A stretch of DNA of 32,337 nt from Leucobacter sp. 7(1) (GTDB lineage: Bacteria > Actinomycetota > Actinomycetes > Actinomycetales > Microbacteriaceae): NCBI RefSeq assembly GCF_900163635.1, contig NZ_FUID01000049.1:1-32337 (forward strand), given 5' to 3'. The notes below the pieces were generated by a model that worked only from the letters and a program-made list of their open reading frames with translations, did not search any database and was not told the DNA's origin. Position numbers and translations under genes: made by a program. Positions 1-32,337 of this stretch are shown piece after piece. Position 1 is the stretch's first letter. Each line of letters begins with the position of its first letter.

Positions 1-1
1 G

Positions 2-139
2 TTGCTGCTCGTCGTCGTCGACATCGCCGCCCGGCTCCTCCTGGCGCCGACGGAGCTGCCCGTCGGTCTACTGACTGCAGCGGTAGGCGCACCCTTCTTC
101 CTCTGGCTGATGCGCAGATCAGGACGGGTGGAAACATGA
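2..139 (+). CDS. FecCD-type ABC importer permease, C-terminal end (partial)
   Basis: Only the last 45 codons are in the window; the gene starts upstream of it. The reading frame ends with a hydrophobic stretch, then PTELPVGLLTAAVGAPFF and a short basic tail. This is the typical C-terminal signature of BtuC/FhuB/FecD permeases for siderophores, heme or cobalamin. The TGA overlaps the ATG of the ATPase gene by 4 bp (ATGA), so the two are translationally coupled. The substrate cannot be read from this fragment. The isonitrile hydratase two genes downstream suggests a metal-isonitrile complex, which is inference. Confidence 0.85.
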   Translation: MLLVVVDIAARLLLAPTELPVGLLTAAVGAPFFLWLMRRSGRVET

Positions 140-28705: not shown

Positions 28706-30771
28706 CCACCGCTCCTTCGACCCAGAATGATGCGGCTCGCGCGAACGATCCAGTAGTCATCAATAGACGCTCGGGCGTCGTACGCACCCTGGCTGCCTTG
28801 TGCGCCGGTCTCGTTCTCGTGCCTCCACCGCTGGTCACGATACTTGCGGGTCCAGCACCCTACGATCTACTTCGCCGGAGCTTCCCGGGTCTTGACGTCG
28901 GTATCCTCACTGCAGCCGGCCAGGCCATCGCTGATGTCGCCGCAATGGTGACCATCGGCGCGCTACTGACGCTGCTGTTCTTCCGGGATGCGCGAGGGCG
29001 GAATGCTGATCTTTTGCGCAGCCCGCTGGAGTTGAAAGTGCTCCAGATCGGTTCAGGGGTGTGGGCTTCTGCCGCGGGCGCGATGGTGGTGTTCACTATC
29101 TTCGATAACAACGGACAGCCTTTCGCGCGGCTGGAGATTTCGAGGGCGCTGTCTTTCCTGTATGAAGCAAGTTCCTTCCCCAAAGCGTGGACAGTGACGT
29201 TGCTCGCCGCTCTCGTCGTGTTCTTCTTCAGCATGTTCATCGAGCATTGGACGGGCCTGCTGATTCCGCTTTGGGCAGCGTGTTTCGGCGTACTGGCCCC
29301 CGTGGTAGTCGGACAGATTCTTGTCGGGCCCGAACACGACTTCGGAAGCGACGCAGGCATCTATCAGTCTTTGCTTACCAGCGCTGCGTTCGGAGTGATC
29401 CTGCTGGCAGGGATCCGGGTCGCATCCGGTCGCCTGGTCTCTGTGGAGATTCTTCCGCGTATCTTCCTGCTGCTTGCATTCACTCTTACGGTTGTTGTCG
29501 GAGCTGATCTTCTCCTTGCCTGGTTCAAACTCGCGGGAACCGGGTTTCTCGACTCCGTCACCGGTTGGCAGATCATTACGCGGTGGATCTTCCTGGCGAT
29601 CATCTGCGGGCTGACGATGTATTCGTGGAGCATTTGGCGACGTCGGCGCATTAACGAGAAGCGGCTGGTGCGCGTGCTTGGCGGTATGGCCATCGCGATC
29701 GCGGGATGGGTGGGCGTCACCGCCGCGATGACCCGTTTCCCGCCTCCGCACTATTTTGTCCCCACGAGCATCTCGCAGGTGTTCTTGGGCTTCGAAGTGA
29801 ATGAGTCGCCAACACCGCTCGTGCTCTTCACGCACTGGCGGCCGAACATTCTCTTCCTGCTCCTCGCAGTGGCAGCGGTCACGGTGTATCTCGTCGCAGT
29901 GAGCACTCTCCGCCGGCGTGGGGATGCTTGGCCGGTGGGACGGACCGTGGCCTGGGTGAGCGGCTGGGTTGTGGTGGTGTTTGTCACCAGCTCGGGTTTC
30001 GGCAAGTACTCAGCACCCGATTTCGGCATCCACATGATCGTGCACATGAGCCTGAACATGCTGGCGCCGATTCTGCTGGTCATGGGCGGCATCGTGACAC
30101 TCCTCCTACGCTCGACCAAGTCGAATCCGAAGCTCCCTGCCGGGATCCATGACTGGGTCACCTGGGCTTTGCACTGGCGCGTGCTTCGTTTCATCTACAA
30201 CCCTCTGATTGTCTTCGCGCTGTTCGTCGGCTCGTACTATGGCCTGTATTTTTCGGGCATCTTCGGCGAGTACATGCGTTTCCACTGGGCCCACCAGTTC
30301 ATGAACGTGCACTTCCTCATCGCGGGTTATCTGTTCTACGGCTTAGTCATCGGCGTGGACCGTCCTCCGCGACCGCTCCCTCACATCGGCAAGCTCGGCT
30401 TTGTGCTTGCGGCAATGCCCTTCCACGCCTTCTTCGGTGTCATCCTGATGTCTGGCGGCGATATCATCGCCGAGAACTTCTACCGGTACCTTGCCTTGCC
30501 CTGGGCCGACCTCAAAGCATCCCAATACTTGGGCGGCGGAGTCGCTTGGGCAGGCGGGGAAATCCCTCTCCTCCTCGTCATCATCGCTCTCGGCGTGCAG
30601 TGGTCGAGACAGGACGCAAAGGATGCACGCCGCAAAGATCGTCACCTCGACGCGGGCCTTGATGACGAGTTCGACGACTACAACCGGATGCTCGAAAAGC
30701 TCAGTGCTCGACAAGCTCGCAACGTGCGAGGGCCCCAGCTTCCCGGCACGAAGGAAGGAACCAGCTCATGA
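28702..30771 (+). CDS. CopD-CtaG fusion membrane protein
   Basis: This 689-residue membrane protein starts at TTG (GAGGG upstream). The N-terminal half is CopD-like, with about eight helices. The C-terminal half is a caa3-type CtaG domain (from about residue 420) with IHMIVHMSLNMLAP, WAHQFMNVHFLIAGYLFYG and MPFHAFFGVILM, His and Met clusters used in copper handling for cytochrome oxidase assembly. The cytoplasmic C-tail is charged. Such CopD-CtaG fusions are common in Actinobacteria. Between CopZ and a CopA-type ATPase, with 4-bp overlaps on both sides, it points to copper delivery to the respiratory oxidase. Confidence 0.9.
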   Translation: MTTAPSTQNDAARANDPVVINRRSGVVRTLAALCAGLVLVPPPLVTILAGPAPYDLLRRSFPGLDVGILTAAGQAIADVAAMVTIGALLTLLFFRDARGRNADLLRSPLELKVLQIGSGVWASAAGAMVVFTIFDNNGQPFARLEISRALSFLYEASSFPKAWTVTLLAALVVFFFSMFIEHWTGLLIPLWAACFGVLAPVVVGQILVGPEHDFGSDAGIYQSLLTSAAFGVILLAGIRVASGRLVSVEILPRIFLLLAFTLTVVVGADLLLAWFKLAGTGFLDSVTGWQIITRWIFLAIICGLTMYSWSIWRRRRINEKRLVRVLGGMAIAIAGWVGVTAAMTRFPPPHYFVPTSISQVFLGFEVNESPTPLVLFTHWRPNILFLLLAVAAVTVYLVAVSTLRRRGDAWPVGRTVAWVSGWVVVVFVTSSGFGKYSAPDFGIHMIVHMSLNMLAPILLVMGGIVTLLLRSTKSNPKLPAGIHDWVTWALHWRVLRFIYNPLIVFALFVGSYYGLYFSGIFGEYMRFHWAHQFMNVHFLIAGYLFYGLVIGVDRPPRPLPHIGKLGFVLAAMPFHAFFGVILMSGGDIIAENFYRYLALPWADLKASQYLGGGVAWAGGEIPLLLVIIALGVQWSRQDAKDARRKDRHLDAGLDDEFDDYNRMLEKLSARQARNVRGPQLPGTKEGTSS

Positions 30772-32337
30772 CGATCCAACAGAACGCCACGGATCCCCTT
30801 CAACTCGATATCTCCGGCATGACCTGCGCCGCATGCGCGGGTCGAGTAGAGCGTGCCTTGGGCCAACTCGACGGAGTAACGGCAAGTGTGAACTACGCCA
30901 CGGAACGCGCCATCATCACTGGGCTTTCGCCCGCCGACGCGGACCTCGCAGTGCGTCGAGTGGAGAAAGCCGGATACGGAGCCCGCGTCCACGATGACGC
31001 CGACGACGCCTGGTCGAGACGCGCAACAGAGGTGAGGATCACCTCCCTCCGGCGCAGACTGCTGGTCGCCGCGATCCTCACAGTTCCACTGATGGACATC
31101 ACGATCGTCCTCGCACTCGTCCCAGGCTGGCGCTTCCCCGGCTGGGAATGGCTCTGTATCCTGCTCGCGCTTCCCATCGTCACCTGGGCGGCATGGCCGT
31201 TTCACAAAGCAACCCTCCGCAACCTCCGCCACGGCAACGTCAGCATGGACACCCTCGTGTCACTCGGCATCGCAGCATCGTTCGGCTGGGCGGTCACGTC
31301 CCTTCTGCTCGGTATCGGGCAGGACGGAGCCGGATACTGGCTCGGCTTCGGCGTCACCCCGGAAGGAGCAAACTCCATCTACCTGGATGTTGCTGCCGGG
31401 ATGACCACATTCCAACTCGCCGGGCGGTACTTCGAAACACGCTCCAGACGAAAAGCGGGAGATGTCCTCGGCGCACTGGGTCAGCTTGCCGCCACCCATG
31501 TGCGCATTACCCGGGATGGCGGCGAGAGCATCGAACCGGCCGGTTCGCTCCGAGTTGGGGATACTTTCGTGGTCCTTCCAGGCGAGACGATTCCGGCGGA
31601 TGGCACGATCAGTGCCGGGTACGCGTCTGTGGACACCAGCATGTTGACAGGGGAACCCGTCCCGAAGGATATCGGCCCGAGAGACAACGTTGTTGGTGGA
31701 ACGATCAGCACCAACGGAAGACTCGAAGTGCTCGCGGTCTCGGTCGGGGCGCATACCCAGCTCGCGCAGATGGCCGCCCTTGCCGAACAGGCCCAATCCC
31801 GTAAAGCTCGAGTACAGACCCTCGTAGACCGCATCACCACCTACTTCGTTCCCGCAGTCATCGCTCTCGCGATTCTCGTGACACTTGCATGGATGCTCGC
31901 AGGCACGGCATTCCAAGACGCCTTCGGTATCGGAATCGCGGTGCTGATTATTGCCTGCCCCTGCGCTCTCGGACTCGCGACCCCCACTGCGCTCATGGTG
32001 GGTATTGGACGAGGTGCAAGTTTGGGCATCCTTGTCAAAGGACAAGACGCACTCGAAGCGAGCGGAACCATCACCACCGTCGTCCTGGATAAGACCGGCA
32101 CACTGACCGCCGGCACGATGACAGTGACGAGCACAGCCACCGCAGCACACATTAGGGAGCACGAGCTGCTCAGCGTAGCCGCGTCAGTCGAGCAAGGCTC
32201 GGAGCACATCATTGCCCGCGCAATCATGGCCGCAGCTAAGAAGCAGATCACGGATCTAGAGCCCGCAGCTGACTTCAGCATTGTTCCCGGGAAGGGAGCG
32301 ACAGCGACGGTCTCTGGCAAACTCGCCATTGTCGGCA
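30768..32337 (+). CDS. copA: Copper-type P1B ATPase (CopA-like), 3' end beyond window
   Basis: The frame is open to the window end (523 codons). It starts with an HMA domain with GMTCAAC (17-23), then membrane helices, the actuator TGE motif (MLTGEPVPKD), the Cu(I)-selective CPC motif in the sixth helix (31956-31964, residues 397-399) within IIACPCALG, and the phosphorylation site DKTGTLT (Asp441). The nucleotide-binding domain and the last helices lie outside. The ATG overlaps the CtaG-fusion stop (ATGA) and GAAGGAA precedes it. It may export excess Cu(I) or supply copper to extracytoplasmic cuproenzymes; the CtaG partner favours the latter. Confidence 0.95.
   Translation, partial: MTIQQNATDPLQLDISGMTCAACAGRVERALGQLDGVTASVNYATERAIITGLSPADADLAVRRVEKAGYGARVHDDADDAWSRRATEVRITSLRRRLLVAAILTVPLMDITIVLALVPGWRFPGWEWLCILLALPIVTWAAWPFHKATLRNLRHGNVSMDTLVSLGIAASFGWAVTSLLLGIGQDGAGYWLGFGVTPEGANSIYLDVAAGMTTFQLAGRYFETRSRRKAGDVLGALGQLAATHVRITRDGGESIEPAGSLRVGDTFVVLPGETIPADGTISAGYASVDTSMLTGEPVPKDIGPRDNVVGGTISTNGRLEVLAVSVGAHTQLAQMAALAEQAQSRKARVQTLVDRITTYFVPAVIALAILVTLAWMLAGTAFQDAFGIGIAVLIIACPCALGLATPTALMVGIGRGASLGILVKGQDALEASGTITTVVLDKTGTLTAGTMTVTSTATAAHIREHELLSVAASVEQGSEHIIARAIMAAAKKQITDLEPAADFSIVPGKGATATVSGKLAIVG

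What the first reader, a model, noticed from the sequence alone, without database searches (positions are those of the whole stretch)
1..32337. A single locus that appears to make, export, take back and destroy an isonitrile metallophore, joined to copper acquisition genes
ScoE- and ScoD-type enzymes, an acyl-AMP ligase, a carrier protein and a PPTase mark isonitrile synthesis. A FecCD/FecE importer with isonitrile hydratase marks uptake and ligand breakdown. CopCD, YcnI, PCuAC, CtaG, CopZ and CopA mark copper. Sco/Rv0096-0101 clusters make isonitrile lipopeptides, and related diisonitriles are known chalkophores. I know of no described locus combining all these parts with glycan genes.
Basis: partly seen in the sequence, partly recalled or inferred. 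Interest (0 to 1): 0.95.

Follow-up and report, generated by a model that had tools for sequence, protein, structure and literature searches.

The report
Peptide-free isonitrile copper-capture gene island
This stretch of bacterial DNA carries relatives of isonitrile-making genes, sugar-chain genes and copper-handling genes behind one repeated DNA motif that is predicted to switch them together, and because no peptide-joining (condensation) domain was found in the genome, the copper-grabbing isonitrile would likely be hung on a surface sugar chain instead of a peptide.

Summary
The gene content is real. ScoE passes NCBI's curated cut-off and keeps 10 of 11 catalytic residues checked; ScoD is a full FcoT domain but below the curated ScoD cut-off. 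An acyl-AMP ligase, FabH-like KASIII, ACP-thioesterase fusion, PPTase, InhA-like hydratase, FecE and the copper genes are present; only the tail of FecCD is. No Condensation (NRPS) domain was found in this genome or in four others with parts of the block. Three other Microbacteriaceae genomes carry most of it at 82-100% protein identity. New here: a palindrome, CTAC-N5-GTAG, lies in all four divergent promoter regions of the window and nowhere else in it (6 sites, 0.06 expected); elsewhere it precedes FecCD-type binding-protein genes beside InhA-like genes. Homologues of the glycan cassette's GT-C glycosyltransferase share contigs with ScoD homologues in nine further cases. I infer one copper regulon making an NRPS-free, glycan-attached isonitrile chalkophore. 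Against it: FecCDE-InhA is not at this spot in the other three genomes, one distant relative keeps an NRPS beside the same parts, and the glycan cassette usually occurs without isonitrile genes. Product, acceptor and copper response are untested. Streptomyces sco clusters already join synthesis to FecCDE import.

The parts
2..136 (+). last 44 codons of a FecCD-type permease (cut by the contig end)
   Evidence: read in frame 2; matches the FecCD ends of A. casei 84%, Kutzneria 59%, Streptomyces-type 63%
136..933 (+). FecE-type ATPase of a metallophore importer
   Evidence: Pfam ABC_tran; 53-55% to the FecE of three distant scoE loci against 28-40% for other ABC ATPases met
930..1763 (+). InhA-like isonitrile hydratase (DJ-1/PfpI)
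   Evidence: Pfam DJ-1_PfpI; PDB InhA 175 bits, VCTG cysteine motif kept; activity untested
1847..2821 (-). WxLIP-like cell-surface protein, two bases after the ligase gene
   Evidence: Pfam WxLIP_PGBD 22.9 bits, below its cut-off of 27.3; kept in G031, G043, G172 and contig C66
2824..4380 (-). ScoB-type acyl-AMP ligase
   Evidence: Pfam AMP-binding; 49-57% to the ligases beside scoE in seven distant loci, 29-35% in five mycobacterial-type ones
4353..5366 (-). acyl carrier protein fused to a thioesterase
   Evidence: Pfam PP-binding and Thioesterase; LGGTS/IGGTS and GHSFG in 14 of 14 proteins; only 13 homologues listed
5363..6331 (-). FabH-like KASIII
   Evidence: Pfam ACP_syn_III; NCBIfam FabH 301.6 bits over cut-off 292.1; 42% to the KASIII beside scoE in G997:C76
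6341..6353 (.). operator-like palindrome between KASIII and the Wzx-like gene
6365..7648 (+). Wzx-like polytopic membrane protein, inferred glycan exporter
   Evidence: 11 hydropathy peaks; no Pfam, NCBIfam or PDB match; homologue next to the ligase in G1383:C56, 35%
7606..8820 (+). GT4 glycosyltransferase
8817..9836 (+). GalE-type sugar epimerase
9870..11591 (-). CopC-CopD fusion with YtkA-like domain
11588..12334 (-). YcnI (DUF1775)
   Evidence: start taken at 12334 by inspection
12385..12984 (-). DUF5134 membrane protein
12992..13004 (.). operator-like palindrome before DUF5134-ycnI-copCD
13191..13203 (.). operator-like palindrome before the 364-aa membrane protein
14318..14689 (-). PCuAC copper chaperone domain
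   Evidence: Pfam PCuAC 88.7 bits
14689..17068 (-). ZnuABC-type metal importer (three genes), substrate uncertain
   Evidence: Pfam ZnuA, ABC-3, ABC_tran; no NCBIfam equivalog cut-off reached for permease or SBP
17078..17090 (.). operator-like palindrome between znuC and gntR
18227..19171 (-). GH16 glycoside hydrolase, lipoprotein-like start
   Evidence: start seen
19155..20183 (-). GT2 glycosyltransferase
20174..20806 (-). 4'-phosphopantetheinyl transferase
20803..21867 (-). beta-lactamase-fold serine hydrolase with an N-terminal hydrophobic leader
   Evidence: leader seen
22082..24181 (-). GT-C membrane glycosyltransferase (TM736)
24174..26132 (-). tandem GT2 glycosyltransferase
26140..26934 (-). 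GT2 resembling polyprenyl-phosphate glycosyltransferases
   Evidence: best NCBIfam AglJ 89.9 bits, below its cut-off of 325
26915..27466 (-). ScoD-type FcoT (enoyl-ACP glycyltransferase type)
27463..28311 (-). ScoE isonitrile-forming oxidase/decarboxylase
28360..28390 (.). two operator-like palindromes between scoE and copZ
28481..28705 (+). CopZ-like HMA chaperone
28702..30771 (+). CtaG-type protein (C-terminal Caa3_CtaG)
30768..32336 (+). CopA-type P1B ATPase (cut by the contig end)

Best explanation
The window is a copper-gene island that encodes a predicted isonitrile pathway without a peptide synthetase, and it likely attaches the isonitrile acyl group to a membrane-assembled glycan that would capture copper at the cell surface. 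Steps: (1) KASIII and the cell's fatty acid synthesis supply an enoyl chain (inferred); the ligase loads it on the carrier half of ACP-TE, which the PPTase primes (inferred from families). (2) ScoD adds glycine and ScoE turns the adduct into the isonitrile (chemistry known for the families, not shown here). (3) With no Condensation domain in the genome (shown), the thioesterase half transfers the isonitrile acyl group to a sugar (inferred, the weakest step). (4) The GT2 proteins, GT4, epimerase and GT-C enzyme build the glycan, the Wzx-like protein exports it, GH16 trims it (inferred). (5) Copper passes to CopC/CopD, YcnI, PCuAC, CopZ and CtaG for cuproenzymes (inferred). (6) Where FecCDE-InhA is present, copper-loaded fragments would be imported and the ligand hydrated to free the metal (inferred). 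(7) The palindrome in all four divergent promoters (shown) makes this one regulon (inferred), with a BlaI/CopY-family repressor as the likely controller.
For: Catalytic ScoE. No Condensation domain in G000, G031, G043, G172 or A. casei G1168 (the same search rings in 4 of 14 control genomes). scoE-scoD overlap each other and the first GT2 gene, and the PPTase gene lies between glycan genes in one run of ten genes (coordinates), kept in G031, G043 and G172. Palindrome: 6 sites in the window, mean 0.06 in 100 shuffles, none reaching 6; all 6 in the 3.6% of the window that is intergenic. 5 hits in 1.95 Mb of 116 loci from outside this group. Same palindrome before the SBP of A. casei SBP-FecCD-FecE-InhA, between SBP and InhA-like genes on contig C65 and before DUF5134 in an isonitrile-free copper locus of the same genome. 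TM736 and ScoD homologues share 9 contig lengths (120 listed of 188, and 120 listed of 180; jittered lists give mean 0.34, largest 4 in 2000), two of them also with an ACP-TE homologue. Distant G1251 has SBP-FecCD-FecE-GT2a-GT2x2-TM736-GH16 and ACP-TE-scoE-scoD-ligase between copA genes, with ctaG. G1383:C56 has ACP-TE-scoE-scoD-ligase-Wzx-like with no Condensation hit in 55 kb.
Against: No product, acceptor, copper binding or copper response was tested. G1251 keeps a C-A-T-R NRPS beside the same parts, so the glycan may come in addition to a peptide. ScoD is below the curated ScoD cut-off. FecCDE-InhA is not at this place in G031, G043 or G172. The glycan cassette is common without isonitrile genes: 22 of 24 genomes with a strong TM736 match lack FcoT. 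In one of the two with FcoT the cassette lies on another contig. The Wzx-like protein has no family match and its model failed (pLDDT 47.8). The palindrome has one more central base than the published CopR-CopY operator and no repressor was tested. It also precedes copZ-ctaG-copA, so a response to copper excess is not excluded. In G031 the ligase reads in two frames, and in G043 galE is broken.
Confidence: 0.48

Rival explanations
1. The isonitrile product is a small soluble molecule (a free beta-isocyano acid, or an ester or amide made by the ACP-TE), and the sugar genes make an ordinary exopolysaccharide that happens to share the regulon.
For: The glycan cassette is widespread without isonitrile genes (FcoT in 2 of 24 genomes). 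ACP-TE resembles the terminal T-TE part of siderophore NRPSs such as EntF, which release small molecules. G1383:C56 has ACP-TE-scoE-scoD-ligase-Wzx-like with the glycan cassette on another contig.
Against: scoE and scoD head the glycan operon with overlapping genes in this genome and lead it in three others; nine further contigs pair ScoD with TM736 homologues.
Confidence: 0.27
2. The product is a copper sponge for excess copper: the regulon is induced by toxic copper and the isonitrile glycan keeps copper outside.
For: The same palindrome precedes copZ-ctaG-copA and DUF5134-ycnI-copCD, and an isonitrile-free copper locus carries it too. A CopA-type ATPase is a usual export gene.
Against: The mycobacterial isonitrile cluster is induced by copper starvation and not by excess (passages of PMC9600254). 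An importer operon carries the palindrome in A. casei.
Confidence: 0.12
3. The isonitrile is an antimicrobial or signal, and InhA protects the maker.
For: Isocyanide hydratases are thought to be defensive and perhaps protective for makers (passage of PMC10792529).
Against: Shared palindrome with copper genes; FecCDE-type import genes tied to it; no close InhA in G031 or G043 (best 35-36%).
Confidence: 0.08
4. An ordinary isonitrile lipopeptide is made with an NRPS that the assembly missed.
For: The window is one contig of 106, and two island copies break the assembly.
Against: No Condensation domain in five genomes, G031 and G172 rated 100% complete.
Confidence: 0.05

Closest known systems
Diisonitrile lipopeptide (INLP / SF2768 / sco) clusters of Streptomyces and mycobacteria
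   Same: ScoE, ScoD/FcoT, ScoB-type ligase; KASIII and SBP-FecCD-FecE in the relative fetched here (G997:C76); isonitriles made for copper in the literature (passages of PMC9600254)
   Different: No NRPS; the carrier is fused to a thioesterase; glycan cassette, surface protein and copper-delivery genes joined to it
Actinobacterial exopolysaccharide-type cassette (tandem GT2, GT-C, GH16)
   Same: Around TM736 homologues in 20 fetched loci: GH16 in 20 of 20, tandem GT2 in 19 of 20, GT2a in 15 of 20
   Different: There no scoE or scoD lies in the 20-kb stretch (0 of 20; in G1251 they lie just beyond it); here they head the operon, with PPTase and serine hydrolase inside
CopY/BlaI operator family
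   Same: TACA/TGTA half-sites, paired sites before a copper operon; a penicillinase-repressor (BlaI-type) gene with a peptidase-type membrane neighbour lies in the flank of G172
   Different: Three central bases instead of two; no repressor gene in the window; binding untested
Isonitrile hydratase InhA (DJ-1/PfpI)
   Same: Best structural-database match, cysteine motif kept
   Different: About 55 more residues at the N-terminus; encoded after a metallophore importer; activity untested

Membership tests
ScoE (NCBIfam NF049937) | score over the curated cut-off | tested here: met
   434.9 bits, cut-off 400
ScoE (NCBIfam NF049937) | iron and substrate residues named for ScoE | tested here: met
   10 of 11 positions kept, Y97 is H (residues other than H132, D134, H295 from passages of PMC7949033; those three recalled). 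The paper reports only reduced product for Y97 changes
ScoE (NCBIfam NF049937) | makes an isonitrile | not testable with these tools
   needs enzyme assay
ScoD | FcoT domain (Pfam PF10862) | tested here: met
   189.6 bits, cut-off 27
ScoD | curated ScoD equivalog NF049938 | tested here: not met
   only family hit, 187.2 bits, cut-off 250
Isonitrile lipopeptide cluster | NRPS with Condensation domain | tested here: not met
   0 matches in the genome and in 4 relatives
Isonitrile lipopeptide cluster | ScoB-type ligase | tested here: met
   49-57% to the ligase beside scoE in seven distant loci
Isonitrile lipopeptide cluster | stand-alone carrier protein ScoC | tested here: inconclusive
   an ACP-TE fusion is present; ORFs under 80 aa were not listed
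InhA isonitrile hydratase | closest to InhA among DJ-1 relatives, nucleophile cysteine | tested here: met
   175 bits to InhA, 158 to 3ewn, then 61; VCTG
InhA isonitrile hydratase | hydrates isonitriles | not testable with these tools
   needs assay
GT-C glycosyltransferase (TM736) | GT-C fold | tested here: met
Wzx/MOP flippase | family match or fold | tested here: inconclusive
   no match in Pfam, NCBIfam or PDB profiles; model pLDDT 47.8
CopR-CopY operator | RNYKACANNYGTMRNY | tested here: not met
   half-sites are three bases apart instead of two

The most novel reading that the evidence does not exclude
A surface-tethered chalkophore: isonitrile acyl groups, made by a ScoE pathway that has shed its NRPS, are hung by an ACP-thioesterase on a glycan built by a GT-C cassette; this copper-binding polymer, its importer and its hydratase form one operator-defined copper regulon that moves between actinobacteria.
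Probability: 0.4. Interest if true: 0.92.

Novelty: new variant of a known kind. Interest (0 to 1): 0.8.

Why it matters
All isonitrile chalkophores whose ScoE-type clusters I saw described in the papers opened here are peptides from an NRPS (passages of PMC9600254). A glycan-bound one would be a new class of metal-capture material and would explain how a bacterium holds copper close by instead of losing it to diffusion. The operator gives a simple handle: it predicts which genes act together and lets the copper response be tested with one reporter. It also bears on the published idea that isocyanide hydratases protect isonitrile makers (passage of PMC10792529), since here an InhA-like gene follows an importer inside such a locus.

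Tried and rejected
Considered and rejected: (a) NRPS elsewhere in the genome. (b) TauD as a taurine dioxygenase: NCBIfam taurine dioxygenase 134 bits, cut-off 313. (c) Plasmid carriage: 10,564 bases of the operon have no megablast match in 72,556 plasmid records; mobility by other means is open. (d) Rfam elements and tRNAs: none. (e) Papers on an isonitrile glycan: the ten searches of the held library listed none; subscription papers are mostly not held, among them the 2017 PNAS paper on these clusters.

Errors of mine, mended: in /scratch/wp.fa the Wzx-like and TM736 proteins were in a wrong frame, so their identities are void; one search has the right ones (97/93/93% and 97/95/97% in G031/G043/G172). 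copZ was in a wrong frame; the right values (91, 93, 86%) are. The fingerprint test was first run on parts of the lists (39 of 120 and 45 of 120) and repeated on all listed rows. The structure of the Wzx-like protein failed and was not searched. 'Metal importer' for ZnuABC could not be settled.

Not tested: large ORFs beside scoD in G996, G1113, G997:C2, G1125, G1002, G1111, G952 and G1091 (1357-2325 aa) were taken as likely NRPSs by size only.

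
Full report
What is there. The window is one whole contig (C63) of a 3.92-Mb, 106-contig genome, 99.5% complete with 4.6% contamination. The annotated genes and their basis are in the parts list.

Isonitrile chemistry. ScoE reaches NCBI's curated ScoE model (434.9 bits, cut-off 400), is 58% identical to PDB ScoE over the printed alignment and keeps 10 of 11 residues checked; Y97 is H. ScoD is a full FcoT domain, but 187.2 bits against the ScoD model's cut-off of 250. The ligase is 49-57% identical to ligases beside scoE in seven distant loci, against 29-35% in five mycobacterial-type loci. 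KASIII is FabH-like, and a KASIII (42%) also lies beside scoE in G997:C76. The carrier is fused to a thioesterase, a rare pairing with 13 listed homologues.

No NRPS. PF00668 has no match in this genome nor in G031, G043, G172 and A. casei; the same search finds it in 4 of 14 control genomes and 91 times in Kutzneria. G043 is 92% complete; completeness of A. casei was not told.

Conservation. FcoT is rare: 3 of 54 genomes in the genus, 2 of 398 in the family draw, 1 of 396 in the order draw, 10 of 394 in the class draw, each counting this genome. G031 and G172 (another genus) keep the block from WxLIP to copA in one order. G043 keeps it without znuABC, gntR, the 364-aa protein and the window's PCuAC, and has about 24 kb between a galE fragment and copCD. 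Protein identities are 82-100%. In G031 the ligase matches in two frames, an error or a broken gene. This genome holds second copies of parts on C65, C66 and C25. The C65 piece is identical over 3308 bases to an Agrococcus casei contig, so recent transfer or contamination.

The operator. CTAC-N5-GTAG occurs six times in the window, against a mean of 0.06 in 100 shuffles with none reaching six. All six lie in the four divergent intergenic regions: KASIII/Wzx-like, DUF5134/364-aa protein (two), znuC/gntR, scoE/copZ (two). Intergenic sequence is 3.6% of the window. Sites: 7 in 60.0 kb of G031, 5 in 100.0 kb of G043, 7 in 120.0 kb of G172, against 5 in 1.95 Mb of 116 loci from outside this group. 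None was found in the fetched G1251, G1383, G997:C76 or Kutzneria stretches. In A. casei a site lies 42 bases before an SBP gene followed by FecCD, FecE and InhA. On C65 two sites lie between an SBP and a DJ-1/PfpI gene. In G172 another contig has a site before a weak SBP match (19.1 bits, cut-off 27.5) next to a DJ-1-like gene. Sites also precede CopC-PCuAC in G172, G031, G043 and C66, and DUF5134 in the isonitrile-free copper locus on C88. The aligned consensus is TAACTCTACAAGATGTAGT. It resembles CopY/BlaI half-sites, but with three central bases instead of two (passages of PMC7253601). A BlaI-type repressor gene lies in the G172 flank.

The glycan link. The 699-residue membrane protein has a confident model (pLDDT 90.3) and a GT-C fold. 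Its homologues sit in a common cassette: among 20 fetched loci, GH16 in 20, tandem GT2 in 19, GT2a in 15, scoE or scoD in none. Of 24 genomes with strong matches 2 have FcoT: G1251, 0.9 kb beyond the fetched stretch of the same contig, and G1383 on another contig. Two of the nine also pair with an ACP-TE homologue, and Micromonospora sp. NBC_01813 pairs GT-C and ACP-TE. This is indirect: lengths are those of the longest contig of each cluster.

Two distant loci. G1251 (GTDB family of mycobacterial relatives) holds, on one contig, copA, SBP-FecCD-FecE, GT2a, GT2x2, GT-C, GH16, methyltransferase, Wzx-like, ACP-TE, scoE, scoD, ligase, GT87, a C-A-T-R NRPS, copA and ctaG. This is the strongest sign that importer, glycan, isonitrile and copper genes belong together, and also the strongest sign that the glycan need not replace a peptide. 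G1383:C56 holds ACP-TE, scoE, scoD, ligase and a Wzx-like gene with no Condensation hit in 55 kb. G1091 has scoE-scoD-ligase beside an InhA-like gene (125.7 bits to InhA) with no Condensation hit in 60 kb, though its other FcoT locus has a large ORF.

Import and breakdown. FecE is 53-55% identical to the FecE of G1251, G997:C76 and Kutzneria scoE loci. A DJ-1 gene (34%) lies next to FecE in G997:C76. In this genome's block FecCDE-InhA replaces the CopC-PCuAC neighbour seen in the other three, so it is a joined module, not a fixed part.

Reading. Known isonitrile clusters feed copper to the cell and its heme-copper oxidase under copper starvation (passages of PMC9600254 and PMC12140626). With copper-delivery and CtaG genes in the same operator set, a chalkophore role is the simplest reading. 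The acceptor is the open step: without a Condensation domain and with scoE-scoD heading a glycan operon, I commit to a glycan-borne isonitrile at 0.48.

Noticed in passing
L004 10683-13990 (G000:C65) and L019 1-3308: The second scoE-scoD-GT2a-GT2x2 piece is identical over 3308 bases to an Agrococcus casei LMG 22410 contig: recent transfer or cross-contamination.
   Followed up: partly
L011 16662-17891 (G043): A phage-type integrase (Pfam) lies about 33 kb beyond the block in G043, amid genes that look conjugative by eye; the block may be part of a mobile element.
   Followed up: partly
L004 4938-5831 and L003 617-1449 (G000:C65): A FecCD permease gene ends early beside genes with integrase-core matches, while a FecCD tail and a FecE lie about 17 kb away on the same contig: an importer apparently split by an insertion.
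   Followed up: partly
L207 4712-12425 (G000:C88): A copper locus (ctaG, copA, DUF5134, ycnI, copCD) without isonitrile genes but with the same palindrome at 9288.
   Followed up: partly
window 14689-17090: The ZnuABC-type operon has the same palindrome upstream; its binding protein ends in a histidine-rich tail, so it may carry copper instead of zinc.
   Followed up: no
window 20803-21867: A beta-lactamase-fold serine hydrolase inside the glycan operon could act on the glycan's acyl groups.
   Followed up: no
L098 14137-15501 (G172): A UDP-glucose/GDP-mannose dehydrogenase gene near the block in G172, with a like-placed gene in G031 (by eye), hints at an acidic sugar.
   Followed up: no
L133 (G1091): scoE-scoD-ligase flanked by an InhA-like gene and an AraC-type regulator with DJ-1 domain, no Condensation hit in 60 kb.
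   Followed up: partly
L100 9978-11530 (G031): The ligase gene matches in two reading frames: sequencing error or a broken gene.
   Followed up: no
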